Assembly: GCF_006152115.1 (NCBI RefSeq)
Contig: NZ_VDFU01000004.1
Location: 1-64,000 of the forward strand
Source of the DNA: Rubellimicrobium rubrum
GTDB taxonomy: Bacteria > Pseudomonadota > Alphaproteobacteria > Rhodobacterales > Rhodobacteraceae
DNA: 64,000 nt
Direction: 5' to 3'
In this document: positions 10,548 to 36,570 of the stretch, one piece after another
How the letters are laid out: each line of letters begins with the position of its first letter
Position numbering within the stretch: position 1 is the stretch's first letter
Position numbers and translations under genes: made by a program
The notes under the pieces: model-generated
Database searches by the model: none
The model's input: the letters and a program-made list of their open reading frames with translations, nothing else
What the model was told of the DNA's origin: nothing

Positions 10548-10565
10548 GCCAAAGCCCGCACGGGT

Positions 10566-10579: not shown

Positions 10580-10671
10580 GGAGGAACCCGGCCATCCCTG
10601 CGAAACCCTCTCCCGGACCGCTCCGCACGCCGAATCCCGGCGGGCGGGCCGAATCAGAGGGACACATCCGC

Positions 10672-20773: not shown

Positions 20774-22399
20774 TCACTCCAGCCCCATCACGAAATCGGC
20801 GCAGCGGCTGCCCAGCATGAGGGCGGGCGCCGTGGTGTTGCCCGCGTTGATGTTGGGGCAGGCGCTCATGTCGGCGACGCGAAGCCCTTCGATCCCCCTC
20901 ACCCGCATCCGTGCATCCAGCACCGCCATCGGGTCACCATCCGCCCCCATCCGCGCGGTCGAGGCCGGGTGGTAGTTGGTCTTGACCATCTTGCGGCAAT
21001 GGGCGGCCAGGCTCTCGTCATCGAGCCGGGCCGGATCGGGGAACTTGATCTCCCGGATGCGGCTCTTCAGCGGCTCGGCCCCGAAGGCCTGCAGAAAGAA
21101 GCGCTGGCCTTCGACCATCTGGCGCATGTCCTCGGGGTCCTTGAGGAGGTTGGGGGAGACGATCGGCTTGTCCGCCGGATTGGCCGAGCGAAGCTTGACC
21201 CAGCCGCGCGAGCGGGGCTTCACCACCACGGTCGTGATGGTCATGCCATGGGTGTTCTTCATCATCTTGAGAAGGTCGCGGTCCAGATACACGATCGGCA
21301 CGCAGAAGGCCTGGATCGTGGGCTCGGCCGTGGGGTCCGACGGGTTGACGAAGGCCCCCGCCTCCACCCCCGCCGAGGTGATCACCCCGGTGCCGAAGAT
21401 CTTGAAGTGGAGGCCGTGCTTGATCATGCGCCAGCCTTCGCCTTGCCCGTAATAGCCGTACTTGCCATTCGCGGTGGCGATGATCGGCACCTCCGGGTGG
21501 TCGACCAGGTTCTGGCCGACGCCGGGCGCATCCTGCAGCACGGGCAGGCCATGCTCGCGCAGATGGTCGGCGGGACCGACGCCCGACAGCATCAGGAGCT
21601 TGGGGGTAATGAGAGCGCCCGCCGCGAGGACGACCTCGCCACGCGCGTAGCTTTTCTGCTCCTGACCCGCCTTGTCGCGCCAGACCACGCCCACGGCGCG
21701 ACCCTGCTCGATCAGGACGCGCTCGGCCCGTGCTTCCAGCTTGAGGGTCAGGCGCGGGTCCTTTTCCAGAGGCGCGATGAAGGCGTAGGCGGCCGAGGAG
21801 CGCTTGCCGTGCCGGTTCATGAACTGGTAGAAGCCGACCCCCCGCTGGGACGTGCCGTTGAAGTCGGGGTTGTAGGGCTCGCCCATGCCCTGCACCGCCT
21901 GCACGAACCAGCGCGAGATCTGGTCGATATGGCCGGGGTCCGACACCTGCAACGGCCCATCGACGTTGTGGAAGTCGTCGTACAGGCGGTTGTTGTCCTC
22001 CATCCGGCGCATGTGGCGGAGAACGGCGGACCACGACCAGTCCGCGCCGTCGTTGTTGCCCCGCAGGACGTCGTTCCACTCCTCGTAGTCCGACGGGCGG
22101 CCGCGCATGTAGACCTGCGCGTTCACGCTCGTGCCGCCGCCCAGCACGTTGCCCTGCGGGATGTCGTGGGCGCGGCCGCCCAGGTGATCCTGCGGCGGCG
22201 TCGTGTGGTAATGCATGAACTTGCTGCCGTTGATCATCTTGAAGATGCCCGGCGGCATGTCGAGCAGCGGGTGGCGGTGCGAGTAGCCCCCTTCGAGCAG
22301 CAGCACCCGGTGCCCGCCCGGGTTCACCAGCCGCGCGGCGGCGACGCAGCCTGCCGCGCCCCCGCCCACGACGATGTAGTCGTATTCGTCACGTGCCAT
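20774..22399 (-). CDS. GMC family FAD-dependent oxidoreductase
   Basis: A 541-residue flavoprotein. N-terminal FAD-binding YDYIVVGGGAAGCVAAARL, the GMC signature region GGGTSVNAQVYMRG, and the C-terminal catalytic His pair region YHPASTARMG with the later NTTAPALMLG motif are all present. Such enzymes (choline dehydrogenase, sugar or alcohol dehydrogenases) oxidise alcohols. It resembles BetA-type enzymes, but nothing in the neighbourhood points to choline. It follows the GntR regulator by 23 bases on the same strand and is divergent from the sugar operon, so its substrate may be a sugar or sugar alcohol of the same pathway. Confidence 0.88.
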   Translation of the reverse strand: MARDEYDYIVVGGGAAGCVAAARLVNPGGHRVLLLEGGYSHRHPLLDMPPGIFKMINGSKFMHYHTTPPQDHLGGRAHDIPQGNVLGGGTSVNAQVYMRGRPSDYEEWNDVLRGNNDGADWSWSAVLRHMRRMEDNNRLYDDFHNVDGPLQVSDPGHIDQISRWFVQAVQGMGEPYNPDFNGTSQRGVGFYQFMNRHGKRSSAAYAFIAPLEKDPRLTLKLEARAERVLIEQGRAVGVVWRDKAGQEQKSYARGEVVLAAGALITPKLLMLSGVGPADHLREHGLPVLQDAPGVGQNLVDHPEVPIIATANGKYGYYGQGEGWRMIKHGLHFKIFGTGVITSAGVEAGAFVNPSDPTAEPTIQAFCVPIVYLDRDLLKMMKNTHGMTITTVVVKPRSRGWVKLRSANPADKPIVSPNLLKDPEDMRQMVEGQRFFLQAFGAEPLKSRIREIKFPDPARLDDESLAAHCRKMVKTNYHPASTARMGADGDPMAVLDARMRVRGIEGLRVADMSACPNINAGNTTAPALMLGSRCADFVMGLE

Positions 22400-22422
22400 G
22401 ATCGGTCTTTCCTGCGGGCCCG

Positions 22423-23142
22423 TCAGGGGCCTTCGAATGTGCCTCGGACGTACTCCCAGGCGGCGTTGAGATGGGACGCGAGCGCCGCCTCGGCGGCATC
22501 GGGGTCGCGGTCCTGGATGGCCGCGAAGATGTCGCGATGCCGAAGGAAGTTCACGCGGTTGCGCTCGGGCGACCGGGGCATCTTCACCCAATGCTCGGCC
22601 AGCCAGGCGGTGAAGGCCCGATGCACCGCCGGAAGGATCGGGTTGCGCGGCACGTCGTAGAGAACCGCATGGAAGGCCACGTCGGTGGCATAGAACAACT
22701 CGCTGTTGTCGATCGCCGCCTCGTTCGCCGCCAGCGCGCGGGCGAGTGCGGCGATGTCGTCCTTGCGGGCCTGAAGGGCGGCATGCCGGACAAGGGCCCC
22801 TTCCAGCAGGATGCGCGTGTCGTAAAGGTTCTTGACCCCTACCGAGTCGCGCAGCAGGTGCCCCACGACCCCCCCGGCGGCGGCCAGCGCCGCGTCCACG
22901 CCGGGACGGCGCACGACGGGCCGGTAGCGGGGGCGGCTTTCGAGGAGGCCCTTGCTGGCCAGTCGGGCCACGGCCTCTCGCACGACGGTGCGGCTCACCC
23001 CGTAGGTGTCTATCAAATCCCGCTCGGGCGGCAGATGGGCGCCGTCGGCCAGCGATCCCGACACGATGCGGGCCTCGATCTCCCGGACTACCGCATCGGC
23101 TGCCCGTAGTCCGGTGCGCAAGGCGAAGGTTTCGTCTGTCAT
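22423..23142 (-). CDS. GntR/FadR family transcription regulator
   Basis: A 239-residue regulator with an N-terminal winged helix (PPERDLIDTYGVSRTVVREAVARL is the classical GntR recognition region) and a C-terminal all-helical FCD ligand-binding domain, whose metal-binding histidines are likely among H186, H196 and nearby residues. FCD regulators usually sense organic or sugar acids. The start at 23142 (MTDETF) is preferred to 23202, because the latter would place a likely operator (23163-23173) inside the gene. It should control its own gene plus the GMC gene and the divergent aldehyde dehydrogenase/ABC operon. Confidence 0.88.
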   Translation of the reverse strand: MTDETFALRTGLRAADAVVREIEARIVSGSLADGAHLPPERDLIDTYGVSRTVVREAVARLASKGLLESRPRYRPVVRRPGVDAALAAAGGVVGHLLRDSVGVKNLYDTRILLEGALVRHAALQARKDDIAALARALAANEAAIDNSELFYATDVAFHAVLYDVPRNPILPAVHRAFTAWLAEHWVKMPRSPERNRVNFLRHRDIFAAIQDRDPDAAEAALASHLNAAWEYVRGTFEGP

Positions 23143-23162
23143 GCAGGCCAGCCCCACAAAGT

Positions 23163-23173
23163 CTGGTATGACT
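23163..23173. promoter_or_regulatory. Putative GntR operator, regulator side
   Basis: TGGTATGACTA differs in one base from the TGGT-N3-ACCA palindrome typical of FadR/GntR-type operators. It lies 21 bases upstream of the preferred regulator start codon. Confidence 0.5.
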
Positions 23174-23302
23174 ATACTCATGCAAGGTTCCGACGCAAAC
23201 ACAAGTTGTAGCGCTGGACAGCTCAGCTAGTTCTCGCCTTTCCGTTTATCTGCGTGATTCACCTCTTGACCTGGAGACGAGTTTGCGCCCTCATGGCGCA
23301 AA

Positions 23303-23317
23303 TTTGGTCATACCAAA
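23303..23317. promoter_or_regulatory. Putative GntR operator, sugar operon side
   Basis: TTTGGTCATACCAAA is a perfect 6-bp inverted repeat with a 3-base spacer and contains TGGT-N3-ACCA. It ends 12 bases before the GTG start of the aldehyde dehydrogenase gene, a position where a repressor would block initiation. Binding by the adjacent GntR protein is inferred. Confidence 0.68.
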
Positions 23318-23329
23318 GGCGATGCACTC

Positions 23330-24802
23330 GTGCTTGATGATCTCCGCTCCATGCTTTCCGAGGCGCGGCCCTTCGAGGCCCGCATGTTCATCGACGGCGA
23401 ATGGCGCGATCCCGCGGGGCTGTCCGTGGATCAGGTCGAGGATCCGGCCACTGGCCGCATGATCGCGACGACCCCCGCCGGAACCCGCGCCCATGCCGAA
23501 GAGGCCTTGGCCGCCGCACGCACCGCGCAACCCGCTTGGGCCAGGATTCCCGCCGTGGAGCGGGCCCGGGCCGTGCTGGCCCTGGCCGACGCCGTTCATG
23601 CCGAGACCGAGACCTTGGCGCGCATCGTCGTGGCCGAACAAGGCAAGCCCATCGGGCAGGCCCGCGGCGAGATCGGGGCGACCGAGACGTTCCTGCGCTA
23701 TGCCGCCGAATGGGCACGGCGGATCGAAGGGGAGATCCTCCCCTCGGATGCGGAGAACGAGGAGATCTGGATCCGTCGCCTGCCCCATGGGGTCGTGGCG
23801 GGGCTCACGGCCTGGAATTACCCCTCGGCGCTCGCGACCCGCAAGCTCGGGCCCGCGCTGGTGGCGGGGAACACCTTCGTCCTCAAGGCGCACGAGTTCA
23901 CGCCGTTGTCGGGCCTCGCGCTTGCCGCGTTGGCCGAGCGGGTCGGGCTGCCCAGGGGCGTGTTCAACGTCGTGACCGGCGACGGGCGCAACGTGGGCGC
24001 CGCGCTCGTCGAGGGCGCCGACATGACCACCATGACGGGGTCCACCCGGGCGGGACGCGAGATCTACGCGACCGGCGCCAAGGGCATCAAGAACCTGCGG
24101 CTGGAACTGGGCGGCAAGGCCCCCTTCATCGTCATGGAGGATGCGGACCTGACCCGTGCGGTGGACGCCGCCGTCGCTGCCCGGTTCACCAACTGCGGCC
24201 AGATCTGCACCTGCAACGAGCGGATGTACCTCCATGAGGCCATCGCGGACGAGTTCCTGGCGCGTTTCGTCGAGAAGTCGAAGGCGCTGAGCATCGGCCC
24301 CGGCATGGACGACCCGGACCTCGGGCCCAAGATCTCGGGCGGCGAGGTGGAAAAGGTCGAGGCGATGACCCTGGCCTCCATCGAGGCGGGGGCCGAGGTG
24401 CTGCTGCGTGGCGGGCCGCTGACGGAGGGCCGTTTCGAGCACGGGCATTTCATGGCGCCGACGGTGCTGGAGGTGCGGTCGAACGACGTGCCGGTGATGA
24501 AGGACGAGGTCTTTGGCCCCGTCGTCGCCGCCAAGCGCGTTGGCTCCTACGAGGAAGCCTTGGGTTACGCCAACGATTCGGCCTACGGGCTCTCGGCCTA
24601 TGTCTGGTCGGCGAATCTGCGCCGCGTGTTCCAGGCGGCCGAGGGGCTCCACTTCGGCGAGATCTACTGCAACCGCACCAACGGTGAGCTGGTGCAGGGC
24701 TTCCACACCGGCTGGGGCCTGTCGGGCCTGGGTGGCGAGGACGGCAAATGGGGCTTCGACGGATATCTCCGCAAGAAGACCATGTACGTGAACTGGGCCT
24801 GA
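23330..24802 (+). CDS. Aldehyde dehydrogenase (AldA-like), sugar operon
   Basis: A 490-residue NAD(P)-dependent aldehyde dehydrogenase. Visible: the oxyanion Asn in AWNYPSA (about 162-165), the general base Glu259 (LELGGKAP), the catalytic Cys293 (NCGQIC) and the C-terminal EVFGPVV motif. It resembles lactaldehyde/glycolaldehyde dehydrogenase-type members. The start is GTG at 23330; an ATG at 23351 is the alternative, and neither has a strong ribosome-binding site. As first gene of the sugar-uptake operon it could oxidise an aldose to its acid. One specific candidate is 3,6-anhydro-galactose to 3,6-anhydro-galactonate. Confidence 0.9.
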   Translation: MLDDLRSMLSEARPFEARMFIDGEWRDPAGLSVDQVEDPATGRMIATTPAGTRAHAEEALAAARTAQPAWARIPAVERARAVLALADAVHAETETLARIVVAEQGKPIGQARGEIGATETFLRYAAEWARRIEGEILPSDAENEEIWIRRLPHGVVAGLTAWNYPSALATRKLGPALVAGNTFVLKAHEFTPLSGLALAALAERVGLPRGVFNVVTGDGRNVGAALVEGADMTTMTGSTRAGREIYATGAKGIKNLRLELGGKAPFIVMEDADLTRAVDAAVAARFTNCGQICTCNERMYLHEAIADEFLARFVEKSKALSIGPGMDDPDLGPKISGGEVEKVEAMTLASIEAGAEVLLRGGPLTEGRFEHGHFMAPTVLEVRSNDVPVMKDEVFGPVVAAKRVGSYEEALGYANDSAYGLSAYVWSANLRRVFQAAEGLHFGEIYCNRTNGELVQGFHTGWGLSGLGGEDGKWGFDGYLRKKTMYVNWA

Positions 24803-24820
24803 CAACGGGCCCGAGAGGAA

Positions 24821-24846
24821 TGCCGCCGGAGAAGGCGGCGCATTTT
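24821..24846 (+). terminator. Intercistronic hairpin before the binding-protein gene
   Basis: TGCCGCC / GGCGGC(G)CA stem with a GGAGAA loop followed by TTTT, placed just before the ribosome-binding site of the periplasmic binding-protein gene. It may attenuate read-through from the aldehyde dehydrogenase gene or protect the downstream mRNA end. Confidence 0.45.
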
Positions 24847-24858
24847 GGGAGGAATGCC

Positions 24859-25836
24859 ATGAAGAGACGTTTCCTGCTTGGGGCCTCGGCGCTGGTTGCC
24901 GCGCTGGCCGTGACCGGCGTGGCGCAGGCGCAAGGCCTGCCGCCGCTGGAGCAGAAGGACAGCTATACCGTCGGCTTCGCCCAAAGCGAGTCCAACAACC
25001 CCTGGCGGATCGCCGAGACCAAGTCCTTCCAGGACACCGCCGAAAGCTGCGGCTGGAACCTGATCGTCACCGACGCGGGCGGCTCGGCCGCCAAGCAGGT
25101 CGCGGACGTGGATTCGATGATCGCGCAGGGTATCGACGTGCTGTTCCTGCCGCCCCGCGAGGAAAGCCCGCTGATCCCCGCCGTGATGCGCGCCCAGGCC
25201 GCCGGCATCCCCACCTTCCTGGTGGACCGTTCGGTGGATGAGGCCGTGGCCCAGGCCGGCACGCACTATGTGGCCTTCCTTGGCTCCGACTTCGTGGACC
25301 AGGGCCGCCGCGCCGCCGAGTACATGATCGAGAACTTCGAGGGCGAGCAGGGCCTCATCATCCAGCTCGAAGGCACCACGGGCTCCTCGCCCGCCAACGA
25401 CCGCAAGTCAGGCTTCGACGAGGCCATCGCCGGCAACGAGAAGTTCCAGATCCTCGAGTCCCGCACGGGCGACTTTGCCCGCGACGAGGGCCGCCGCGTG
25501 ATGGAAACGTTGCTCCAGGCGCATCCCGAGGTGAACATCGTCTACGCCCACAACGACGAGATGGCGATCGGCGCGATCCAGGCGCTGGAAGCTGCCGGCC
25601 GCAAGCCCGGCGAGGACGTGTTCGTCTACTCGATCGACGGCACCCGCGACGCGCTGCAGGCGATCATCGACGGCAAGATGGAAGTCACCGTCGAGTCCTC
25701 GCCTTTCTTCGGCCCGCTCGCCTGCGAGACGATGAAGCGCTATGCCGCCGGCGAGACGATCGAGCCCTGGGTGAAGGTGGAGGACCGCATCTTCACCGCC
25801 GAGAACGCCGCCGAGCACATCGGCGAGGCCTACTGA
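24859..25836 (+). CDS. ytfQ: Sugar ABC transporter periplasmic binding protein, YtfQ-like
   Basis: A 325-residue precursor with a clear Sec signal peptide (KRRFLLGASALVAALAVTGVAQA). The mature part is a class I periplasmic binding protein: VGFAQSESNNPWR, AQGIDVLFLPPREE, LVDRSVDE, LEGTTGSSPANDRK, and VYAHNDEMAIGAIQAL, all as in E. coli YtfQ (galactofuranose binding). The ATG at 24859 has a GGGAGG ribosome-binding site 7 bases upstream; a longer in-frame start at 24748 overlaps the preceding gene. It delivers the sugar to the permease pair downstream. The real ligand need not be galactofuranose. Confidence 0.92.
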   Translation: MKRRFLLGASALVAALAVTGVAQAQGLPPLEQKDSYTVGFAQSESNNPWRIAETKSFQDTAESCGWNLIVTDAGGSAAKQVADVDSMIAQGIDVLFLPPREESPLIPAVMRAQAAGIPTFLVDRSVDEAVAQAGTHYVAFLGSDFVDQGRRAAEYMIENFEGEQGLIIQLEGTTGSSPANDRKSGFDEAIAGNEKFQILESRTGDFARDEGRRVMETLLQAHPEVNIVYAHNDEMAIGAIQALEAAGRKPGEDVFVYSIDGTRDALQAIIDGKMEVTVESSPFFGPLACETMKRYAAGETIEPWVKVEDRIFTAENAAEHIGEAY

Positions 25837-25875
25837 GCCGCCGGGTCCCCGCGCCCGCGTGGGAACTTCCTTCCT

Positions 25876-25903
25876 TCAGGCGCCATCCTCGGGTGGCGCC
25901 TGA
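25876..25903 (+). terminator. Perfect hairpin between binding-protein and ATPase genes
   Basis: Ten-bp perfect arms TCAGGCGCCA (25876-25885) and TGGCGCCTGA (25894-25903) with an 8-base loop, 39 bases after the binding-protein stop codon. Hairpins here commonly lower expression of the ATPase and permeases relative to the abundant binding protein. Confidence 0.6.
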
Positions 25904-25924
25904 TCGTCCTGAAAGGTCGCCCCG

Positions 25925-27463
25925 ATGACCGAACCCCTCCTCCAGATGACCGGCATCCAGAAAGCCTTTGCGGGCATTCCGGCGTTGCGCGAGGCAAGCT
26001 TGCGCATCCTGCCGGGCGAGGTGCACGCCTTGGTCGGCCAGAACGGCGCGGGCAAATCGACCCTCATCAAGATCCTGACCGGTGTGTACCGCCGCGATGC
26101 GGGCGAGGTGCTGTGGCAGGGCCGCCCCGTGGACCTGAGGTCGCCGCGCGACGCGCAGGGCGTGGGCATCGCGACCATCTACCAGGAACTCACGCTGGTC
26201 CCGCAGCGGACCGTGACCGAGAACATCGTGCTGGGCTACGAGCCTCGCACCCGCTGGGGCGCCATCGACTGGCGCGCCGCCGACGCCCGCGCCCGCGAGG
26301 TGCTCTCCCGCTTCGGGATCGAGCTGGACCTGCACCGGGCGCTGGGCTCCTATCCCACCGCGATCCAGCAGCTCGTGGCCATCGGGCGCGCGGCCTCCAT
26401 GGAGGCCAAGCTCCTCATTATGGACGAGCCGACATCCTCGCTTGATGAGCGCGAGGTGGAGACGTTGTTCGGCGTGATGCGCGCGCTCAAGGCGCGCGGA
26501 ACCTCGATCCTTTATGTCAGCCACTTTCTCGACGAGCTGTTCGCGGTCTGCGATGGCGTCACCATCATGCGCGACGGCCGCACGGTGGGCGAGACGCGGA
26601 TTGCGGACACCAGCAAGCTCGACCTTATCGCCGGAATGCTGGGCCGCGACCCGGACGAGATCCGGGCGGCGGGCCGCACGCAGCTTTCCACCGACCAGAC
26701 GCATGCCGGCCCGGTGTTCCTTGAGGCCAAGGGCCTGTCCTCGGACCGCCGCCTGCGCAGGCTCGACCTCGAGGTGCGCGCCGGAGAGATCGTGGGCCTT
26801 GCCGGTCTTCTGGGCTCGGGCCGCACGGAGTCCGCACGCGCGATCTTCGGGATGGACAAGGTTACGGGCGGCACGCTGCGAGTCGGAGGGCGCGACGTGC
26901 GCCTGTCCTCCCCCCGGGACGCCATCGACGCGGGCATCGCCTTCCTGACCGAGGACCGCAAGGTCGAGGGGATCATCCCCGACCTGTCGGTGCGCGAGAA
27001 CCTGACCCTCGCCCTCCTGCCCCGCCTGTCCAAGATGGGCATAGTGGACGAAGCGCGTGAACGGCAAATCGTGCAGGGCTTCATCAAGGCGCTGGGCATT
27101 CGCACCGCCGACATGGACCAGCCCATCCGGGAACTGTCCGGTGGCAACCAGCAGAAGGTGCTGCTCGGCCGCTGGCTGGCGCTGGAACCCAAGCTCCTCA
27201 TCCTCGACGAGCCCACGCGCGGCGTGGACGTGGGCGCCAAGCTCGAGATCCAGTCGATCATCGCCAAGCACGTCGAACAGGGCTGCGCCGTGCTCCTCAT
27301 CTCTTCGGAGTTCGAGGAGTTGATTGAGGGCGCGCACAACATCGTCGTGCTCCAGGAGGGGCGGTCGGTGCGGAAGCTGAACAACCCGGGCGTGACCGAG
27401 GCCTCGCTGATCCACGCCATCGCCGAGCCGCCGGACACCCCGCATGTGGAGGCCGCCGAATGA
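25925..27463 (+). CDS. ytfR: Sugar ABC transporter ATP-binding protein, YtfR-like
   Basis: A 512-residue double ATPase of the carbohydrate (CUT2) type. First domain: Walker A GQNGAGKST and Walker B LLIMDEPTSSLD. Second domain: degenerate Walker A GLLGSGRTE, the signature LSGGNQQKVLLGRWL and Walker B LLILDEPTRGVDVGAK. The asymmetry is normal for the CUT2 family. Its stop overlaps the first permease start by 4 bases. It powers import through the two permeases encoded next. Confidence 0.95.
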   Translation: MTEPLLQMTGIQKAFAGIPALREASLRILPGEVHALVGQNGAGKSTLIKILTGVYRRDAGEVLWQGRPVDLRSPRDAQGVGIATIYQELTLVPQRTVTENIVLGYEPRTRWGAIDWRAADARAREVLSRFGIELDLHRALGSYPTAIQQLVAIGRAASMEAKLLIMDEPTSSLDEREVETLFGVMRALKARGTSILYVSHFLDELFAVCDGVTIMRDGRTVGETRIADTSKLDLIAGMLGRDPDEIRAAGRTQLSTDQTHAGPVFLEAKGLSSDRRLRRLDLEVRAGEIVGLAGLLGSGRTESARAIFGMDKVTGGTLRVGGRDVRLSSPRDAIDAGIAFLTEDRKVEGIIPDLSVRENLTLALLPRLSKMGIVDEARERQIVQGFIKALGIRTADMDQPIRELSGGNQQKVLLGRWLALEPKLLILDEPTRGVDVGAKLEIQSIIAKHVEQGCAVLLISSEFEELIEGAHNIVVLQEGRSVRKLNNPGVTEASLIHAIAEPPDTPHVEAAE

Positions 27464-28476
27464 GTGAGCCAAGCAGCCTGACCGGGCGCGGCCTGGGCGG
27501 CGTGGGCGAAGCCCCCGCCCCGCGCCGGTCGCGCGTGAACCGCCGCTTCCTCGGCCTCGTGGTGGCGCTGGCGGCGCTGATCCTCCTCAACGTCCTGCTG
27601 ACGCCGAACTTCCTCGCCGTGCAGACTCTCGCGGTGAACGTAAGCCAGGTGTCCACGGTCGCCATCGTGGCGCTGGGCATGACGCTCGTGATCGCGACCG
27701 GAGGCGTGGACCTGTCAGTCGGCGCGGTCATGGCCGTGTCCGGCGCGCTGGCCCCGCTCATCTTCGGGAGCGCCTGGGGCCTCGCCAATCCGGGCCTGGG
27801 TCTTCTGGCGGCGATCGTGCTGCCGCTGCTGGTCGCCATGTGCTGCGGGCTGTTCAACGGAACGCTCGTAAGCTTCCTGGGCGTCCAGCCCATCATCGCC
27901 ACGCTGATCCTGTTCATCTCGGGCCGCGGCGTCGCGCAGGTGCTGACGAACGGCAACCTCCAGACCTTCTCGAACCCGAGCTTCACCTGGCTGGGCACGG
28001 GCCGCATCCTCGGCCTGCCGGTGCAAGGCTGGATCGCGATCCTCCTGACGTTGGTCGTGGCGCTGATCGTCCGGAAGACGATCTACGGCCGCTACCTGCT
28101 GTCCGTGGGCGGCAATGAGCGGGCGGCGGCGCTGGCAGGGACGCCCGTCGCCAAGGTCAAGATCGCGACCTATGCCATCGCCTCGACCTTTGCGGGCCTT
28201 GCCGGGCTGATCGACGTCGCCATCAACTCGGCGTCCGACGCCGCGCGCGTGGGCAACCTGATGGAACTCGACGCCATCGCCGCGGCCGTGGTGGGGGGCG
28301 CCGCGCTCTCGGGCGGTCGCGCGCCGATCCTCGGGACGCTCCTGGGCGCCATCTTCATCCAGCTCGTGGGCTATACGCTGATCGCGAACGGCGTGCCCGA
28401 CGAGGCCACCTTCATCGTGACGGCCGCGATCATCGTCATCGCCGTCTATCTCCAGGACAGCCGGAGGCGCACATGA
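27460..28476 (+). CDS. ytfT: Sugar ABC transporter permease, YtfT-like
   Basis: A 338-residue permease of the ribose/galactofuranose (CUT2) class with about 8-10 hydrophobic segments. Family features include MTLVIATGGVDLSVGAVMAVSG and the C-terminal GGRAPILGTLLGA signature. The N-terminal 25 residues are polar and Pro/Gly-rich. Its start overlaps the ATPase stop in ATGA and its stop overlaps the second permease start in ATGA, so the three are coupled. Confidence 0.93.
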   Translation: MSEPSSLTGRGLGGVGEAPAPRRSRVNRRFLGLVVALAALILLNVLLTPNFLAVQTLAVNVSQVSTVAIVALGMTLVIATGGVDLSVGAVMAVSGALAPLIFGSAWGLANPGLGLLAAIVLPLLVAMCCGLFNGTLVSFLGVQPIIATLILFISGRGVAQVLTNGNLQTFSNPSFTWLGTGRILGLPVQGWIAILLTLVVALIVRKTIYGRYLLSVGGNERAAALAGTPVAKVKIATYAIASTFAGLAGLIDVAINSASDAARVGNLMELDAIAAAVVGGAALSGGRAPILGTLLGAIFIQLVGYTLIANGVPDEATFIVTAAIIVIAVYLQDSRRRT

Positions 28477-29474
28477 CCACCGCCCCCCTCGATCTCAACC
28501 TTCGCCGCTACATGCGCCCGCTGGGCGGGGGCACGCACCTGACGGTCTGGGTGGCGCTCGCGCTCCTGATCCTGCTGGGATACCTGCGCTACGACAACTT
28601 CCTGTCGGCCTACAACATCAGCTCGTTCCTGGGGTACAACTCCATGTTCGTGCTGATCTCGGTGGGGATGTGCCTCGTCATCATGACGGGGGGCATCGAC
28701 CTTTCGGTGGGGGCGGTCGCGGCGCTGGCCAGCGTGACCGCGGCGCTCCTGAGTCCCCTGGGCCTGCTCGTGGCATTGCCGGCGGGGATGCTGACGGGCC
28801 TCGTGGCGGGCGCGATCAACGCCGGGCTGATCGTCGGCCTGCGGCTGCCGCCGTTCATGGCGACGCTGGCCACCATGCTGGCGGCGCGGGGAACCTCGCT
28901 GGTGGTGTCGGACCGGCAGGCGGTGTCGGTGGACTGGAGCTCGGACTTCACCGCGCTCGGCATGAACAAGATCGCATCGATCCTGCCCTGGACCATCGTG
29001 GTGGCCATCCTTGTTGTGGTCGTGGCGTGGTACATCTTGGAGAAGACCTCGCTGGGCCGCACTGTCCTGGCGGTCGGCGGCAACGCCGAGGCCGCGCACC
29101 TCATGGGGCTCAAGACCTCGCGCGCGCTGATCTTCGTCTACCTGTTCTCGGGCGCCTGCGCGGGGCTCGCGGGGGTGTTCCTTGCCTCGGGCTATGGCGC
29201 GGGGCAGCCCCTGGAGGGGCAGGGCTGGGAACTGGCCGCCATCGCCGCCGTGGTCGTGGGGGGCACTCTCCTAACCGGGGGCATGGGGTCGGTTCCGGCG
29301 ACGGTGGCCGGGGCGCTGCTGTTCGGCCTTGTCTTCAACCTCCTCAACTTCGAGAACGGGCTTGGGGTCATCTCGCTGTCGGCCTACTGGCAATCGGTGA
29401 TCCGAGGGGCTTTCCTTCTTGTCGTCATCCTCCTGCAGGTGCGGTTGGCCCGTCCTGCCGCAGCCAAGGCCTGA
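28473..29474 (+). CDS. yjfF: Sugar ABC transporter permease, YjfF-like
   Basis: A 333-residue CUT2 permease with the same family hallmarks as its neighbour (VGMCLVIMTGGIDLSVGAVAAL, TGGMGSVPATVAGALLFG). Two different permeases next to a YtfQ-type binding protein and a double ATPase is the arrangement of E. coli ytfQRT-yjfF, so this one corresponds to YjfF. The two probably form a heterodimer. Starts inside the previous stop codon (ATGA). Confidence 0.93.
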   Translation: MTTAPLDLNLRRYMRPLGGGTHLTVWVALALLILLGYLRYDNFLSAYNISSFLGYNSMFVLISVGMCLVIMTGGIDLSVGAVAALASVTAALLSPLGLLVALPAGMLTGLVAGAINAGLIVGLRLPPFMATLATMLAARGTSLVVSDRQAVSVDWSSDFTALGMNKIASILPWTIVVAILVVVVAWYILEKTSLGRTVLAVGGNAEAAHLMGLKTSRALIFVYLFSGACAGLAGVFLASGYGAGQPLEGQGWELAAIAAVVVGGTLLTGGMGSVPATVAGALLFGLVFNLLNFENGLGVISLSAYWQSVIRGAFLLVVILLQVRLARPAAAKA

Positions 29475-29480
29475 CCGTCC

Positions 29481-30578
29481 ATGACCCGAACCATCGTCGA
29501 CCTCCAGGCTCGCCTGTTCCGCGTCCCGCTGGACGAGGTCATGTCCGACGCCAAGCACGGTGACCACACGCATTTCGAACTCGTCACGGTGACGATCTGC
29601 GACTCCGAGGGGCTGGAAGGGACCGGCTACACCTATACCGGCGGCTTCGGCGGGCGGGCGATCCTGGCCATGGTCAACCACGACCTGCGTCCCTTCCTGC
29701 TGGGCAAGGACCCCTCGCAGATCGAGGCGCTTTATGACGGGATGCAGTGGCGGGTCCACTACGTCGCGCGGGGCGGCATCGCGAGCTTCGCCATCTCGGC
29801 CGTGGACATCGCGCTCTGGGACATCAGGGGCAGGGCCGAGGGGCAGCCGCTCTGGCGCATGGCCGGGGGCGCGTCGAACCGCTCCAAGGTGTATCGCGGC
29901 GCCATCGACCTGAACTTCCCCTATGAGAAGCTCATGGACAACGTGCGGGGCTACATCGCCGAAGGCTTCGAGGCGGTGAAGATCAAGGTCGGGCAACCCA
30001 ATCTGGCCGACGACGTCCGTCGCGCCGAGGGCGTGCGCGAGATCCTGGGACCCGACCGCATCTTTGCCGTCGACGCGAACTACTCGCTGTCCGTGCCGCA
30101 GGCCATCGAGGCCGCGAATGCCTTCAAGCCGCTGAACCTCTTGTGGTTCGAGGAGCCGACGATCCCCGACGACTACCAGGGCTATGCCCGGATCGCGGAT
30201 GCGACCGGCGTGCCGCTGGCGATGGGCGAGAACCTCCACACGATCCACGAGTTCGAATACGCCGTGGATCAGGCCAAGCTGTCCTTCCTGCAACCCGACG
30301 CCTCAAACTGCGGCGGGGTCACCGGCTTCCTGCGCGTCGCGCATTTGTGCGCCCAGCACGGCATCCCCGTCTGCTCGCACGGGATGCAGGAACTCCATGT
30401 GAGCCTTGTGGGCGCGCAGCCCAACGCGGGCTGGGTCGAGGTCCACAGCTTCCCCATCGATCGCTACACGACGCGCCCTCTCGTCCACGAAGGGCTGCAC
30501 GCGGTCGCCCCCGACACCCCCGGAACCGGCGTCGTCTTTGCCTGGGAGCGTCTCGCGCCCTACGCCATCCACGCCTGA
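29481..30578 (+). CDS. Enolase-superfamily protein, likely 3,6-anhydro-galactonate cycloisomerase type
   Basis: A 365-residue member of the mandelate racemase subgroup. Metal ligands are D198 (VDANYSL), E224 (FEEP) and E250 (GENLHT); acid/base residues are K167/K169 (KIKVG) and H300 (CSHGMQE). Several stretches ([45 protein letters not shown]) are, from my memory of the family, shared with the bacterial 3,6-anhydro-alpha-L-galactonate cycloisomerase that gives 2-keto-3-deoxy-galactonate. Context supports this: aldehyde dehydrogenase before, dehydrogenase and KduD-like reductase after. Other sugar-acid dehydratase activities of the subgroup (galactarate, fuconate, arabinonate types) cannot be excluded. 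Confidence 0.85.
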
Positions 30579-30591
30579 CAGGAGAACAACC

Positions 30592-31620
30592 ATGACCATC
30601 CAGGCGGCCTTCTACACCGGCCACAAGACCTTCACCCTTGAGCAGAAGGACGCCCCTGCCCCCGGTCCGGGCGAGGTCCAGCTCGACGTGGCCTATGTCG
30701 GCATCTGCGGCACCGACATGCACGTCTTCCATGGCAACATGGACGCCCGCGTCGGCAACCATCGCGTGATCGGCCACGAGATGTCGGGCACCGTCGCCCA
30801 AGTCGGCGAAGGGGTCGAGGGCTTCGCGCCCGGCGATCTTGTCGTCGTGCGCCCGCTCGCCCATTGCGGCGAATGCCCGGCCTGCCAGGCGGGCTACACC
30901 CATATCTGCCACAAGCTGAAGTTCCTGGGCCTCGACACCGATGGCGCGCTTCAGGAGAAGTGGAACGTCCCCGCACACACGCTGCACAAGCTGCCTCAGG
31001 GCATGTCGCTGGAAACGGCCGCGATGATCGAGCCGCTGGCCGTGGCCGTCCATGACATCCGCCGCGCCCGCCTTCAGGCCGGGGAAACGGCGCTGGTCAT
31101 CGGCGGCGGCCCCATCGGCATGCTGATCGCCATGGTGGCGAAGCATGTGGGCGCCAACGTCATCCTCTCCGAGATCAACCCCAACCGCCTCAAGATGGCG
31201 GCCGAGATGGGCTTCACCGGCCTCAACCCGCGCGAGGGCGACGTGGCCGCGCAGGTGACCGAGATCACCGGGACCAAGGGCGCGGACGTGGTGTTCGAGG
31301 TTTCAGGCACGCAGCCCGGCGTGGACCTGATGACCGCCGCCGCCGCGACGCGGGGCCGGATCTGCATGGTCGCGATCCATGCGCAAAAGGCGCAGGTGGA
31401 CCTGTTCCGCTTTTTCTGGCGCGAGCTGGAGATGGTCGGCGCCCGGGTCTACGAGGCCGTGGACTACGATCAAGCCATCCAGATGATTGCGGACGGGCTG
31501 GACGTGAACCGCCTCATCACCGACCGGCATCCGCTGGCTGCCGTCCAGCAGGCCTTCGAGGCGCTGGAAGGGAATGCGACGGCCATGAAGACCCTGATCA
31601 AGATCGGAGAGACGGCGTGA
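30592..31620 (+). CDS. Zinc-dependent alcohol dehydrogenase (MDR family)
   Basis: A 342-residue medium-chain dehydrogenase. Catalytic zinc ligands are C39 (GICGTDMH), H62 and E63 (GHE); the structural zinc site is C92, C95, C98 and C106. The nucleotide fold has GGGPIGML with an acidic residue after the second strand (SEINPNRL), which suggests NAD use. It resembles sorbitol, idonate or galactonate-type dehydrogenases. In the proposed pathway it would oxidise the 5-hydroxyl of 2-keto-3-deoxy-galactonate. The ATG at 30592 has a GGAG site upstream; its stop overlaps the next gene by 4 bases. Confidence 0.9.
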   Translation: MTIQAAFYTGHKTFTLEQKDAPAPGPGEVQLDVAYVGICGTDMHVFHGNMDARVGNHRVIGHEMSGTVAQVGEGVEGFAPGDLVVVRPLAHCGECPACQAGYTHICHKLKFLGLDTDGALQEKWNVPAHTLHKLPQGMSLETAAMIEPLAVAVHDIRRARLQAGETALVIGGGPIGMLIAMVAKHVGANVILSEINPNRLKMAAEMGFTGLNPREGDVAAQVTEITGTKGADVVFEVSGTQPGVDLMTAAAATRGRICMVAIHAQKAQVDLFRFFWRELEMVGARVYEAVDYDQAIQMIADGLDVNRLITDRHPLAAVQQAFEALEGNATAMKTLIKIGETA

Positions 31621-32378
31621 GCACCCTGTTCGACCTTACCGGCAAGACCGCCCTTGTCACTGGCGCGCGGCGCGGCATCGGCGCGGGCATGGCGCTCGCG
31701 CTGGCCGAGGCCGGGGCAGACATCATCGGCGTCTCGGCCCAGATGGAGGCCGACGGCGGCGACGTGGGCGAGAAGATCCGCACCATGGGCCGCCGTTTCG
31801 AAGGGCACGCCGTCAACTTCGCCGACCGGCAGGCGCTCAAGGCCTTTGCCGAACGGATGGAGCAGGCGCCCATCGACATCCTCATCAACAACGCCGGCAC
31901 CATCAAGCGCCAGCCCGCCGCCGAGCACCCGGAGGAGTGGTGGGACGAGGTCATCGAGACCAACCTGTCGGCCCAGTTCCTGCTCACCCAAGCCGTGGGC
32001 CGGGGCATGATCGCGCGGGGCAAGGGCGGGAAAATCATCTTCACGGCCTCGCTCCTCACCTTCCAGGGCGGGATCAACGTGCCGGGCTATGCGGCCTCCA
32101 AGGGCGGGATCGGCCAGCTCACCATGGCCTTTGCCAACGAGTGGGCGTCCAAGGGGATCAACGTCAACGCCATCGCGCCGGGCTACATCGCCACCGACAA
32201 CACCGAAGCCCTCAGGGCCGATGCGGACCGGTCTGCCTCCATCCTGGGCCGCATCCCGGCAGGCCGCTGGGGCACGCCCGAGGACTTCGGCGGCCCGGCG
32301 GTGTTCCTGGCCTCCAAGGCGTCCGACTATGTCAGCGGCACGATCCTGACGGTGGACGGAGGCTGGATGGGGCGCTGA
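31617..32378 (+). CDS. kduD: Short-chain dehydrogenase, KduD-like
   Basis: A 253-residue SDR with the cofactor motif TGARRGIGAG, the NNAG strand, the catalytic Ser (TASLLTF), and Y-A-A-S-K. Conserved stretches LFDLTGKTALVTG, INNAGTIKR, FQGGINVPGYAASKGG, NVNAIAPGYIATDNTEALRAD and RIPAGRWG are those of 2-deoxy-D-gluconate 3-dehydrogenase / 2,5-diketo-3-deoxygluconate reductase (KduD). In the proposed pathway it would reduce 2,5-diketo-3-deoxy-galactonate to 2-keto-3-deoxy-gluconate. It is the last gene of the operon; a hairpin terminator follows. Confidence 0.9.
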   Translation: MSTLFDLTGKTALVTGARRGIGAGMALALAEAGADIIGVSAQMEADGGDVGEKIRTMGRRFEGHAVNFADRQALKAFAERMEQAPIDILINNAGTIKRQPAAEHPEEWWDEVIETNLSAQFLLTQAVGRGMIARGKGGKIIFTASLLTFQGGINVPGYAASKGGIGQLTMAFANEWASKGINVNAIAPGYIATDNTEALRADADRSASILGRIPAGRWGTPEDFGGPAVFLASKASDYVSGTILTVDGGWMGR

Positions 32379-32662: not shown

Positions 32663-33649
32663 TCATTCGCCGGGCGCGAGGCCCCGGAAGTCTCCGCGTG
32701 TCCGCAGGCCGAGGATCCGCTGGAGGGCGTAGGGGCGTGGCGCGGTACCCGTCTCGGGCCGCATCCGCGTGCTGAGGACGGGCTGGTTGGCCGAGGCGCC
32801 GGGCGTGTCCTCGCGCAGGACGATGTACAGGCCCGAGGCGATGATGATGCCTGCCCCGATGGCTGTGGTCCCGTCGATGGTTTCACCAAAGAGGAGGTAG
32901 CCATAGAACGCCGCGAACAGGATCTGGACATACTGCATGGGTGCCACGACGACCGCCACACCGGCCTTGTAGGCTGCGATGATGACGACCCCCGCCACCC
33001 ATCCTAGGCAGGCCTGGATCGCAATCAGGCCCAGATGCTCGGCCTCGAGCGGGATGTAGACCGAGGGCAGGACGAGCGAGGTGACCGCGAGGTTCGCGAA
33101 CATCGGATACAGCAGGAGGACGACGGGCCGTTCCTCGGAGCCGACCTTGCGCACGATGATCGAGGCCACCGCCCCGAACACAGCCGCCGAGAGCGCGGCA
33201 AGGTGGCCAAGGCCAAGTTCGGCCGAGCCGGGCCGGAGGACCACCATCACGCCCGCCAGCCCCGCCACGACCGCCAGCGCCCGGCGGAGACCAACCTTTT
33301 CGCCCAGGACAGGGATGGCGAGGAGCGTGATAAGGAGCGGCTGCGCAAAGGCCAAGGCATAGACCTGCGCCAGGGGCAGCACCGAAAAGGCGTAAAAGGC
33401 CGACAGCCCGCAGATCACCGTGGAGGCCGAGCGGAGCGCGATCCAGCCCGGATGGACGGGGCGAAGCGTTCCGGGCCGCGAGTCGCTCATCACCATCCCC
33501 ATGGCGAGGGGAAACGAGAAAAGCGTGGAAAAGAAGATGAGCTGGAAGGGCGAGTAATCCTCGCCCAACTGTTTCACGAGGGCATCGCTGGTCGCGTAGA
33601 TGCCGAAGGCCAGGAGCGACAGCAGCGCTCCTTTCCCGTTCTGTGCCAT
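32663..33649 (-). CDS. EamA/DMT family transporter
   Basis: A 328-residue membrane protein with ten hydrophobic segments arranged as two EamA repeats (about residues 5-140 and 150-285), typical of drug/metabolite transporters. The second repeat ends with the EamA-like AAFYGYLLFGETID...IGAGIIIASGLYI pattern. A 40-residue polar C-terminal tail is longer than usual. The substrate is unknown. It lies 84 bases downstream of leuB on the same strand, so read-through from leuB is possible. Confidence 0.88.
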   Translation of the reverse strand: MAQNGKGALLSLLAFGIYATSDALVKQLGEDYSPFQLIFFSTLFSFPLAMGMVMSDSRPGTLRPVHPGWIALRSASTVICGLSAFYAFSVLPLAQVYALAFAQPLLITLLAIPVLGEKVGLRRALAVVAGLAGVMVVLRPGSAELGLGHLAALSAAVFGAVASIIVRKVGSEERPVVLLLYPMFANLAVTSLVLPSVYIPLEAEHLGLIAIQACLGWVAGVVIIAAYKAGVAVVVAPMQYVQILFAAFYGYLLFGETIDGTTAIGAGIIIASGLYIVLREDTPGASANQPVLSTRMRPETGTAPRPYALQRILGLRTRGDFRGLAPGE

Positions 33650-34913: not shown

Positions 34914-36425
34914 TCAGAGCACGAAGGCGTCCGGGTCGAGAGGCGAGGTTAGGCCGAGCAGGAGGATCGACATCTCGGCCCGGCTGTCGCCGTCGAGGTT
35001 CATCTCAAGGAGCAGGTTGCTTCCCGTCATGATCTGCCGGATCTCGCCCAAGGCGAAGGTGCCGCCATTGTCGAGCCGGAAGGCGCCGTTGCCCGCAGCC
35101 CCGCCGCTGGCGTCGATGGCGGCCAGCAGGATCTGGTCGTCGCGGGCCGAAAAGCCCGCCACCACATCGCGGCCCGCGCCAATGCCGCTATCCACGGCCG
35201 CCCGGAAGATGATGCGGTCGAACCCCGCCCCGCACTCGATCCTGTCCGCGCCCATGCCGCCGGTGAGCCGGTCGTCGCCCGTGCTCCCGACCAGCGTATC
35301 GCTGCCCGAGCCGCCCTGGAGCACGTCATTGCCTGCGGCCCCGTTCAGACGGTCCTGCCCGGCAAGCCCCGACAGCACGTTGTCCGCCCCGTTGCCCCGG
35401 ATCGTGTCCCGGCCCGCTCCGCCGGTCGCGTTCTCGATGACAGCCCTGTTGGCGATGGTGAAGCCGCCATGGACATAGCCGCCGTCGGCGCCCCTTGCAT
35501 GGGACAGGACGCCGCCCCCGCCCGGGGCAAAGGCCAGGGTCGCCGCGCGCAGGTCGATGGTATTGCCATGGTCGCCCCCCACGATGCGGTCGATCCCGCC
35601 CGCGTCCCAGATGCAGGAATAGTAGGTGCCGACCTTGTTGGCTGTCGGAAGCAGATAGGTGTCGTTCCCCGTCCGCACGGTCATGTTGGCGCCGTACATC
35701 CGCTGCAGCGCCGCGATGTCGAGCGCCATGGGACCGGCCTGATAGCCGTAGACGAGGCTTGGCGACACGCCTGCGGGCCCGGTCGGCCAGCCGTCGTTGT
35801 AGCCCATCATCGTGTAAAGGCCCTGGTTCATGGCCAAGTTGCCGAAGTCCCCGAACGCGTCCGTCACGCCGGGAAACCGTGTCGAGCCGCCCCCGTCGTC
35901 ATGCGGATGCGCAAGACCCACGGCATGTCCGAGTTCGTGGATGAAGGTGCAGAAGTCGTAGCCGCCCCGGACCAGCATGGTCGGGCCGCTCGCAGGGTCG
36001 TAGAGCTCCCAGTTGATGGCGACCACGCCCAGCGCCTCGCCGTTGCGGAAGCCCTCGCCCGGAGGATAGGCCAAGCCCAGCGTCCCGTCGCTGCCCAGGT
36101 CGGCATCGCTCACGCTGGCCCAGATCAGGTCCGCGGCTCCCTGGGACGAGACCTCCCGGAAATCGAGGTTGCAGACGGACTCGAGGGAGGTCATGGCGGC
36201 ACGCATGGCGCGCAGTTCCCCTGCAAAGGGGCTGGTGGCCGTGACGGTCATGGAATCGCCGAAGGTGTCGGTCAGCGTCACGTTCTCATCGAAGGCCTGT
36301 CCTGCGATGTAGGTGCTGATCACGGTCCTGCCGCCGCCCGAGGACCACTCCCGACCCCAGAGCAGCGCATCGAGCCAGACATTGCCGGTGTTCGGGGTCT
36401 GGATGTCGTCTGCTGTGCCGGCCAT
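34914..36425 (-). CDS. Serralysin-like M10 metalloprotease with RTX repeats
   Basis: A 503-residue putative secreted protease. The zinc motif is H163-E-L-G-H167-A-V-G-L-A-H173-P, followed by the Met-turn at residues 204-210 (YTMMGYN), as in matrixin/serralysin enzymes. Residues about 275-420 are the M10 C-terminal region with RTX calcium-binding nonapeptides ([40 protein letters not shown]). The tail ends in hydrophobic-rich DAFVL, a type I secretion signal pattern. No N-terminal signal peptide, as expected. No type I exporter genes are nearby, so export must use one encoded elsewhere. A ribosome-binding AAGGA precedes the ATG. Confidence 0.92.
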
Positions 36426-36570
36426 GCTCGTTTATCCTTGATGGAGCCGCCCGCGCGTCGTGCGAGCGTGGCCAGCGTACCATCCGGAGGCCAGGGCAAC
36501 CATGACCCGCTCCGGAAGATCGACAACACTTCTGGTAAGTTACAGGAAAACCACCGGTTGCCTCCCTTTG

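What the first reader, a model, noticed from the sequence alone, without database searches (positions are those of the whole stretch)
20774..32378. Candidate 3,6-anhydro-galactose catabolic operon with its own ABC importer
Seen: in one run, an aldehyde dehydrogenase, a YtfQ-YtfR-YtfT-YjfF-type importer, an enolase-superfamily protein with metal ligands D198/E224/E250 and H300, a zinc dehydrogenase and a KduD-like reductase. Known: 3,6-anhydro-L-galactose is oxidised to anhydrogalactonate, cyclo-isomerised to 2-keto-3-deoxy-galactonate, oxidised at C5, then reduced to 2-keto-3-deoxy-gluconate. These four steps need exactly an aldehyde dehydrogenase, a cycloisomerase of the enolase superfamily, a dehydrogenase and a KduD-like reductase. 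Inference: the operon serves agar or porphyran-derived sugars, with a CUT2-type importer not usually associated with this pathway.
Basis: partly seen in the sequence, partly recalled or inferred. Interest (0 to 1): 0.75.

Follow-up and report, generated by a model that had tools for sequence, protein, structure and literature searches.

The report
Anhydro-galactose scavenging operon with ABC importer
This is a gene set, in a bacterium related to Rubellimicrobium, that very probably imports and burns an unusual red-algal sugar (3,6-anhydro-L-galactose) although no enzyme for freeing that sugar from agar was found in its genome.

Summary
Observation confirmed; interpretation largely supported. 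The enolase-superfamily protein's best solved relative is a 3,6-anhydro-L-galactonate cycloisomerase (ACI; 538 bits, 60.8% identity; next protein 316 bits), with shared active-site motif blocks. Bacteroidota loci pair ACI with the same dehydrogenases; 8 of 13 such PUL-type loci hold a GH117. Flammeovirga aldehyde and zinc dehydrogenases hit the window genes best in this genome.

New here: (1) a CUT2 importer, below all YtfQ/GafA cut-offs, recurring with ACI in 27 of 80 loci and on a soil Paracoccus plasmid; (2) GH117 and GH50 not found in 22 of 22 importer-bearing alphaproteobacterial genomes searched, so probably a scavenger; (3) of 61 fully flanked loci, 25 of 27 CUT2 but 0 of 13 TRAP loci carry the aldehyde dehydrogenase (relatedness not corrected); (4) a GMC flavoprotein in 27 of 27 CUT2 loci and 0 of 34 others, role unknown; (5) a recurring palindrome TTTGGTNNNACCAAA, one place in the 4.6-Mb genome, upstream of this operon (the reversed control pattern also has one place).

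Weakest: importer ligand (its contact residues are shared by a Sinorhizobium importer without ACI nearby) and GMC role. Nothing was assayed.

The parts
20774..22399 (-). GMC flavin oxidoreductase (choline-dehydrogenase-like), role unknown
   Evidence: PF00732/PF05199 (run on 20774-22375); best PDB 8b7s, 326 bits (run on 20774-22387); homologue >=50% identical in 27 of 27 CUT2 loci and 0 of 34 other fully flanked loci
22423..23202 (-). GntR/FCD transcriptional regulator, likely repressor of the operon (start possibly 23142)
   Evidence: PF00392/PF07729; NanR model 179.5 vs cut-off 260; co-occurs with the operator
23303..23317 (.). Predicted operator TTTGGT-CAT-ACCAAA
   Evidence: One place with <=1 mismatch in the 4.6-Mb genome, reversed control pattern also one place; relaxed form TTGGT-N3-ACCAA in 20 of 31 regulator-to-first-gene regions, window included, against at most 1 in the shuffled regions shown
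23330..24802 (+). Aldehyde dehydrogenase: predicted 3,6-anhydro-L-galactose dehydrogenase
   Evidence: PF00171; best PDB 6j75, 462 bits (printed name 'Aldehyde dehydrogenase A', recalled as an AHG dehydrogenase of Vibrio variabilis); best own-genome hit of the Flammeovirga porphyran-locus ALDH, 45%, 467 vs 340 bits for the runner-up
24859..25836 (+). Periplasmic sugar-binding protein (CUT2)
   Evidence: PF13407; YtfQ model 234.7 vs cut-off 510; median 81.3% identity over 24 non-Rubellimicrobium loci, highest of the cassette
25925..27463 (+). CUT2 importer ATPase
   Evidence: YtfR model 572.2 vs cut-off 850
27460..28476 (+). CUT2 importer permease 1
   Evidence: PF02653; YtfT model 204.2 vs cut-off 535
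28473..29474 (+). CUT2 importer permease 2
   Evidence: PF02653; YjfF model 197.4 vs cut-off 363
29481..30578 (+). Predicted 3,6-anhydro-L-galactonate cycloisomerase (enolase superfamily)
   Evidence: 5xd7/5xd8 538 bits, 5xd9 535 bits; 60.8% identity over 362 residues, motif blocks shared; tree
30592..31620 (+). Zinc dehydrogenase: predicted 2-keto-3-deoxy-L-galactonate 5-dehydrogenase
   Evidence: PF08240/PF00107; best own-genome hit of the Flammeovirga ADH, 50%, 352 vs 140 bits for the runner-up
31617..32378 (+). KduD-like SDR: predicted 2,5-diketo-3-deoxy-L-galactonate 5-reductase
   Evidence: TIGR01832 328.8 vs cut-off 338.85; 65-71% identical to an SDR in 9 of 10 Bacteroidota loci (one of the nine matched over 66% of its length), none in L083, only 41-42% in the two Kiritimatiellota loci

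Best explanation
A scavenging operon for 3,6-anhydro-L-galactose (L-AHG). The CUT2 ABC importer takes up free L-AHG released by agar- or porphyran-degrading neighbours. The aldehyde dehydrogenase oxidises it to 3,6-anhydro-L-galactonate; the enolase-superfamily enzyme opens the anhydro ring to give 2-keto-3-deoxy-L-galactonate; the zinc dehydrogenase oxidises C5; the KduD-like SDR reduces it back with inverted configuration to 2-keto-3-deoxy-D-gluconate (KDG); KDG kinase and KDPG aldolase encoded elsewhere in the genome complete it to pyruvate and glyceraldehyde-3-phosphate. The GntR/FCD regulator probably represses at TTTGGTCATACCAAA upstream of the first gene. Shown by sequence: gene content, order, homology, conserved motifs, co-occurrence, recurring palindrome. 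Inferred: every reaction, the importer ligand, repression, and the GMC role (my guess: it oxidises the same C1, perhaps of an alcohol form of the sugar).
For: ACI: 538 bits, 60.8% identity; motif blocks [48 protein letters not shown], [11 protein letters not shown] shared by window, 5xd7 and most homologues, each changed in at least one letter in 2ovl. A Cohnella ACI with reported activity is only 55.9% identical to VejACI (PMC9008576, passages). PUL-type loci: ALDH and ACI, mostly with ADH and SDR, and in 8 of 13 a GH117. Pathway in print for Pseudoalteromonas atlantica and Paraglaciecola (PMC5943477, passages). Kinase NF052444 292 (cut-off 400) and aldolase TIGR01182 229 (cut-off 156) in the genome. 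GH117 and GH50 not found in 22 of 22 importer-bearing alphaproteobacterial genomes, found in 5 of 5 and 3 of 5 PUL-type genomes. ALDH with CUT2 25 of 27, with RhaT 11 of 12, with TRAP 0 of 13. Binding protein keeps 8 of 9 YtfQ galactofuranose contacts, plausible for a five-membered anhydro ring. Palindrome.
Against: No assay. All nine contact residues are the same in a Sinorhizobium meliloti pSymB importer with LacI and phytanoyl-CoA dioxygenase neighbours and no ACI annotated in the stretch read, and none of the 17 plasmid records with ACI at E<=1e-120 is Sinorhizobium (chromosomes not searched), so that pocket is not exclusive to AHG catabolism. A ribose-type protein (2ioy) shares 7 of the 9 window residues, so the pocket match is weak evidence. 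The GMC gene, constant in CUT2 loci, is not in the pathway passages I read. Two CUT2 loci lack ALDH and the closely related L010 lacks ADH and SDR (best SDR elsewhere 41%). The nearest relatives are Rubellimicrobium, inland as far as I recall, where a source of L-AHG is not obvious. The ALDH is only 45% identical to the Flammeovirga one. Only two well-supported independent tree pairs bear on the ALDH/transporter match. Same-genus genome G317 lacks both ACI and binding protein at the thresholds used.
Confidence: 0.72

Rival explanations
1. The operon handles another sugar with the same intermediate, for example L-galactose (or galactitol through the GMC enzyme) to L-galactonate; [quoted passage not shown]
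For: Same product and chemistry class (established knowledge); GMC plus ALDH would make a polyol-aldose-acid pair and GMC is constant in CUT2 loci; inland relatives (recalled); GH117 and GH50 not found; importer contact residues shared with an importer without ACI nearby.
Against: Motif blocks match the solved ACI and the ACIs of agar/porphyran loci; ordinary aldoses are usually oxidised by sugar-1-dehydrogenases with a lactonase (recalled) and no lactonase was recognised in the operon, whereas an ALDH fits an aldehyde-type sugar.
Confidence: 0.15
2. The CUT2 importer carries a reduced or derivatised form such as 3,6-anhydro-L-galactitol; the GMC enzyme makes the aldehyde, ALDH the acid, and the rest is the AHG pathway.
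For: GMC in 27 of 27 CUT2 loci and 0 of 34 others; a palindrome directly upstream of GMC in L072; two loci keep GMC without ALDH; the best structure hit is named chloramphenicol-inactivating oxidoreductase (recalled to oxidise a primary alcohol), followed by proteins named choline dehydrogenase and alcohol oxidase.
Against: No known environmental source of the alditol (no search made for one); RhaT and GH117 loci do without GMC.
Confidence: 0.1
3. A talarate/galactarate-type acid-sugar dehydratase operon unrelated to AHG.
For: The best curated NCBIfam hit is the talarate/galactarate dehydratase.
Against: 221.6 bits against a 500-bit cut-off; 188 bits to the solved talarate dehydratase against 538 to ACI.
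Confidence: 0.03

Closest known systems
L-AHG catabolic pathway of Pseudoalteromonas atlantica T6c / Paraglaciecola hydrolytica (PMC5943477, passages read; Lee et al. 2014 not read)
   Same: AHG dehydrogenase, ACI, C5 dehydrogenase, diketo reductase, then KDG kinase; clustered genes
   Different: P. hydrolytica is an agar degrader with GH16/GH50/GH117; here GH117 and GH50 were not found, and there is a CUT2 importer, a GMC enzyme and a GntR/FCD regulator; kinase and aldolase lie elsewhere in the genome
Vibrio sp. EJY3 AHGD/ACI (PMC9147760, part 1 of 4 of the text read; ACI structure 5xd7, organism recalled)
   Same: Same two first enzymes; ACI 60.8% identical with shared motifs
   Different: In that organism KDGal is believed to enter central metabolism directly (PMC5943477 passage); no importer described in what I read
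GafABCD / YtfQ-R-T-YjfF importers (PMC10191376, PMC3454389, passages)
   Same: Four-subunit CUT2 architecture; 8 of 9 sugar-contact residues kept, W16 and R17 among them
   Different: E13 becomes N as in a ribose-type protein; PVVxTG loop becomes PREE; 36-41% identity; below all family cut-offs; linked to AHG genes
Zobellia D-AHG pathway DauABCD (PMC5698469, passages)
   Same: Analogous chemistry on the other enantiomer
   Different: DauB (5olc) only 135 bits here; the D route uses kinase and aldolase, not C5 dehydrogenase and reductase
Sinorhizobium meliloti pSymB LacI-CUT2-PhyH system (L104)
   Same: The nine contact residues identical to the window's; 60.7% identity overall; kduI, kduD, uxaC and a TRAP system annotated just upstream
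   Different: No ACI, no NAD-type ALDH and no zinc dehydrogenase among the annotated genes shown (the gene table is incomplete; an aldehyde dehydrogenase iron-sulfur subunit is at the edge); LacI regulator; ligand unknown to me

Membership tests
L-AHG catabolic pathway | ACI orthologue with its active-site motifs | tested here: met
L-AHG catabolic pathway | AHG dehydrogenase orthologue | tested here: inconclusive
   Best own-genome hit of the Flammeovirga locus ALDH, 45% identity, one direction only; best PDB hit 6j75, its AHG identity recalled
L-AHG catabolic pathway | C5 dehydrogenase and KduD-like reductase | tested here: met
   ADH, one direction; KduD model 328.8, cut-off 338.85; SDR 65-71% in 9 of 10 Bacteroidota loci
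L-AHG catabolic pathway | KDG kinase and KDPG aldolase in the genome | tested here: met
   the kinase is under its equivalog cut-off (292 vs 400)
L-AHG catabolic pathway | Enzymes active on AHG and AHGA | not testable with these tools
   Needs assay
Agar/porphyran utilisation system | GH117 and an agar/porphyran depolymerase in the genome | tested here: not met
   GH117 0 and GH50 0 in own genome; GH16: five hits, one ExoK-like (300.3 vs 350), three not classified, one under the Pfam cut-off; GH86, GH96, GH118 not searched
GafA/YtfQ galactofuranose importer | NCBIfam equivalog cut-offs | tested here: not met
   234.7/510, 572.2/850, 204.2/535, 197.4/363
GafA/YtfQ galactofuranose importer | The nine sugar-contact residues of YtfQ | tested here: not met
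   8 of 9; E13 replaced by N. Four of the nine positions were read one residue later in my copy of 2vk2 than in the paper, because only there the residue types agree
L-talarate/galactarate dehydratase | NF047820 cut-off | tested here: not met
   221.6 vs 500
KduD (TIGR01832) | Equivalog cut-off | tested here: not met
   328.8 vs 338.85, narrowly

The most novel reading that the evidence does not exclude
Anhydro-galactose is public goods: Alphaproteobacteria that cannot free it from agar carry an ACI regulon with exchangeable uptake modules. CUT2 plus ALDH (and GMC) takes the neutral sugar or its alcohol, while TRAP without ALDH takes the already oxidised 3,6-anhydro-L-galactonate. The CUT2 system would be the first ABC importer assigned to L-AHG that I know of, and the TRAP version would imply that agar degraders leak anhydrogalactonate. 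(Lack of GH117/GH50 was tested in 22 importer-bearing genomes only, not in the TRAP genomes.)
Probability: 0.35. Interest if true: 0.68.

Novelty: new variant of a known kind. Interest (0 to 1): 0.52.

Why it matters
L-AHG is one of the two sugars of agarose and is studied mainly in agar degraders. A dedicated importer in bacteria in which no agar-cutting genes were found would show that the rare sugar is shared in the environment, extend its catabolism to inland bacteria, and give uptake genes and a regulator/operator pair for engineering red-algal sugar use. The split between CUT2 with ALDH and TRAP without ALDH gives a directly testable prediction about which form is imported.

Tried and rejected
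Talarate/galactarate, fuconate and D-AHG cycloisomerase identities for the enolase-superfamily protein: rejected on score. YtfQ/GafA membership of the importer: rejected. Agar-degrader reading: not supported. The sigma-70 scan found no site and the terminator scan 5 against 3.5 expected. A tree test for independent ALDH/transporter changes had only two well-supported pairs (six if weak branches are counted) and cannot reach significance. The best GMC structure hit did not suggest a substrate. In the titles and abstract openings of the 11 papers listed I saw no ABC importer assigned to L-AHG; I did not read those papers for it, subscription journals are mostly missing, and this is no proof of absence. 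No structure prediction or fold search was run.
Full report
What is there. The region holds a ten-gene divergent cluster: on the minus strand a GMC flavin oxidoreductase (20774-22399) and a GntR/FCD regulator (22423-23202); on the plus strand an eight-gene operon, ALDH, CUT2 binding protein, ATPase, two permeases, enolase-superfamily protein, zinc dehydrogenase and KduD-like SDR (23330-32378), with gaps of -4 to 88 bp. Catalytic motifs as I recall them are in place: K167/K169, D198, E224, E250, D273, H300 in the enolase-superfamily protein; a GQIC motif in ALDH; GHE and a four-cysteine motif in the zinc dehydrogenase; YAASK in the SDR. The genome is 4.6 Mb; its nearest relatives in the ACI tree are Rubellimicrobium species (94% to L009).

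Identity of the key enzyme. Against the PDB the enolase-superfamily protein scores 538 bits with 5xd7/5xd8, named 3,6-anhydro-alpha-L-galactonate cycloisomerase (organism, Vibrio sp. EJY3, recalled), then, apart from 5xd9 of the same enzyme, 316 with 2ovl, 188 with L-talarate/galactarate dehydratase, 135 with 5olc (DauB, the D-AHG enzyme, by PMC5698469) and 104 with L-fuconate dehydratase. Identity to 5xd7 is 60.8% over 362 residues, to 2ovl 44.7%. Nine motif blocks were compared over window, 5xd7, 2ovl and the 80 locus homologues: the commonest forms in each group agree with 5xd7 at the motif letters, with exceptions (one CUT2 row reads GENFHT, others vary beside the motifs), while 2ovl differs in each block, clearly in the 20s loop (KHGDH against THGAM) and around H300. 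In a tree of 83 rows the smallest well-supported sets that hold the window consist of rows with the same importer; the 13 PUL-type rows (Bacteroidota, Kiritimatiellota, Aliagarivorans), one Verrucomicrobiota row and 5xd7 form one group (100/100). 2ovl was the only outgroup, with a very long branch, so the root is unsure, and other characterised dehydratases were not in the tree. A Cohnella ACI with reported activity is only 55.9% identical to VejACI (PMC9008576, passages).

The other enzymes. PUL-type means here: a RhaT-like permease (12 loci) or a GH117 homologue (8 loci) within the flank, 13 loci together. Flammeovirga L080 holds ADH, SDR, ALDH, ACI, aldose epimerase, the RhaT-like permease, a GH117 (best PDB hit 3,6-anhydro-alpha-L-galactosidase, 656 bits) and a protein with beta-porphyranase domains; Algibacter L088 also holds a protein with Agarase_CBM and GH42 domains that I call GH50-type. 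The L080 ALDH and ADH, searched in the window's genome, hit the window genes best (467 vs 340 bits; 352 vs 140 bits; one direction only). The lower pathway with C5 dehydrogenase and reductase is described for P. atlantica and P. hydrolytica (PMC5943477, passages). The window's genome has a KDG-kinase-like protein (292 bits, cut-off 400) and a KDPG aldolase (229, cut-off 156) on other contigs.

Scavenger. A GH117 query found matches in 0 of 22 importer-bearing alphaproteobacterial genomes (own included) and 5 of 5 PUL-type genomes; two further loci (L064, L055) could not be searched. A GH50-type query gave 0 of 22 and 3 of 5. The PUL-type genomes were chosen for their loci, so they are positive controls, not a random sample; genomes of TRAP loci were not searched. 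GH16 occurs in the own genome (five hits) and in 8 of the other 21 alphaproteobacterial genomes: of the own five, one is ExoK-like (300.3 against a 350 cut-off); I read three others as ORFs with RTX-like repeats and did not classify them; the fifth is below the Pfam cut-off. GH86, GH96 and GH118 were not searched, so inability to cut agar is likely, not shown.

Distribution and modules. 27 of 80 carry a binding protein at least 50% identical. 61 of 80 have at least 9.5 kb upstream and 6 kb downstream; 19 were left out of this count: CUT2 27 (ALDH 25, GMC 27, ADH 21, SDR 23; these 27 include two Mameliella loci with a different importer), TRAP 13 (ALDH 0, GMC 0, ADH 9, SDR 9), RhaT 12 (ALDH 11, GMC 0), none 9 (ALDH 1, GMC 0). 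Over all 80 loci, 0 of 16 TRAP loci have an ALDH of that cluster. Fisher p for ALDH with CUT2 against TRAP is 9e-9, but the loci are related (several Ruegeria and Flammeovirga; L016/L017 nearly identical, L086/L087 identical in ACI); on the tree only two well-supported independent pairs exist, agreeing in 1.8 of 2 on average, too few for significance. The TRAP, IlvD/EDD, second enolase-superfamily and erythronate-dehydrogenase identities come from one representative per cluster. TRAP systems generally carry acids (established knowledge), so the split reads as 'sugar imported, ALDH needed; acid imported, ALDH not needed'. In the window's family, ACI (E<=1e-120) is in 55 of 295 genomes and the binding protein (E<=1e-90) in 6 of 295, own included; the one other same-genus genome has neither. 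A 129.5-kb plasmid of Paracoccus sp. AK26 from pesticide-contaminated soil at Lucknow carries all ten genes in the same order.

The importer. It is the most conserved part (median 81.3% over 24 non-Rubellimicrobium loci against 71.7% ACI and 62.5% ADH) yet scores far under the YtfQ/R/T/YjfF cut-offs. PMC3454389 (passages) lists nine YtfQ sugar contacts (E13, W16, R17, D90, R91, R145, F169, N198, D226); the window and all 27 loci with this importer keep eight and have N for E13 (the last four positions lie one residue later in my copy of the chain). A ribose-type protein (2ioy) has the same N and differs from the window only at W16 and R17, so the pocket is between the GafA and ribose types. 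NNPWR and PREE are invariant in the 27 loci, where GafA has ESGWR and PVVxT. Against exclusivity: the S. meliloti pSymB LacI-CUT2-PhyH binding protein has the same nine residues, and the Rhizobium ACI loci (L013, L019, L021) use a binding protein 90% identical to it; no Sinorhizobium is among the 17 plasmid records with ACI. So the ligand is plausibly a five-membered-ring sugar, AHG by context only.

Regulation. Searching 31 regulator-to-first-gene regions (window included) for gapped palindromes gave TTGGT-N3-ACCAA in 20, against at most 1 in the shuffled regions shown. In the window it reads TTTGGTCATACCAAA at 23303-23317, the only place with up to one mismatch in the genome, while the reversed-pattern control also gave one place, so uniqueness is modest evidence alone; the recurrence is the stronger part. 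The relaxed site occurs in 12 of 27 CUT2, 11 of 16 TRAP, 2 of 2 Mameliella, 2 of 22 other and 0 of 13 PUL-type loci; 11 of the 12 CUT2 sites lie within 400 bp upstream of an operon gene. In L030, L034, L048, L050 and L073 a site lies close to the start of the DctP gene, and in L072 one lies at the start of GMC, which ties TRAP and GMC to the ACI regulon.

Open. GMC role, importer ligand, environmental source of the sugar inland, and how L010 (R. aerolatum) manages without ADH and SDR in its cassette.

Noticed in passing
window 20774-22399 and the CUT2 loci: GMC flavoprotein in 27 of 27 CUT2 loci and 0 of 34 other fully flanked loci; not in the pathway passages I read.
   Followed up: partly
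L027, L030, L034, L036, L043, L046, L048, L050, L057, L073, L085: ACI lies with a TRAP transporter and no ALDH; some loci also carry an IlvD/EDD dehydratase, a second enolase-superfamily protein or an erythronate dehydrogenase.
   Followed up: partly
L010 (Rubellimicrobium aerolatum) 10001-12231: ACI is followed directly by a gene like the window's 32663-33649 (DMT-type by my reading), which lies after the SDR in the window; ADH and SDR are missing, and the best SDR elsewhere in that genome is 41%.
   Followed up: partly
L024, L072 (Mameliella): A different sugar ABC importer sits with ALDH, GMC, GntR, ACI, ADH and SDR: apparent importer replacement.
   Followed up: no
L104 7914-13403 (S. meliloti pSymB), L106 (Skermanella): Sister importer LacI-SBP-ATPase-two permeases-phytanoyl-CoA dioxygenase with the same nine contact residues.
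   Followed up: partly
L011: Contig labelled Mycobacterium (MAG) holds ACI 76% and permease 83% identical to the window; probably a misbinned alphaproteobacterial contig.
   Followed up: no
window 34914-38541 (-): Two large ORFs with RTX-like glycine/aspartate repeats, one with an HExxHxxGxxH-like motif of secreted metalloproteases (read).
   Followed up: no
L094, L095, L096 (own genome C5, C13, C41): GH16-like ORFs joined to RTX-like repeats.
   Followed up: no
L098 (own genome C10): A KDPG-type aldolase match beside an ORF that reads like 2-dehydro-3-deoxygalactonokinase (my reading, not confirmed by a family hit; the stretch given had none).
   Followed up: partly
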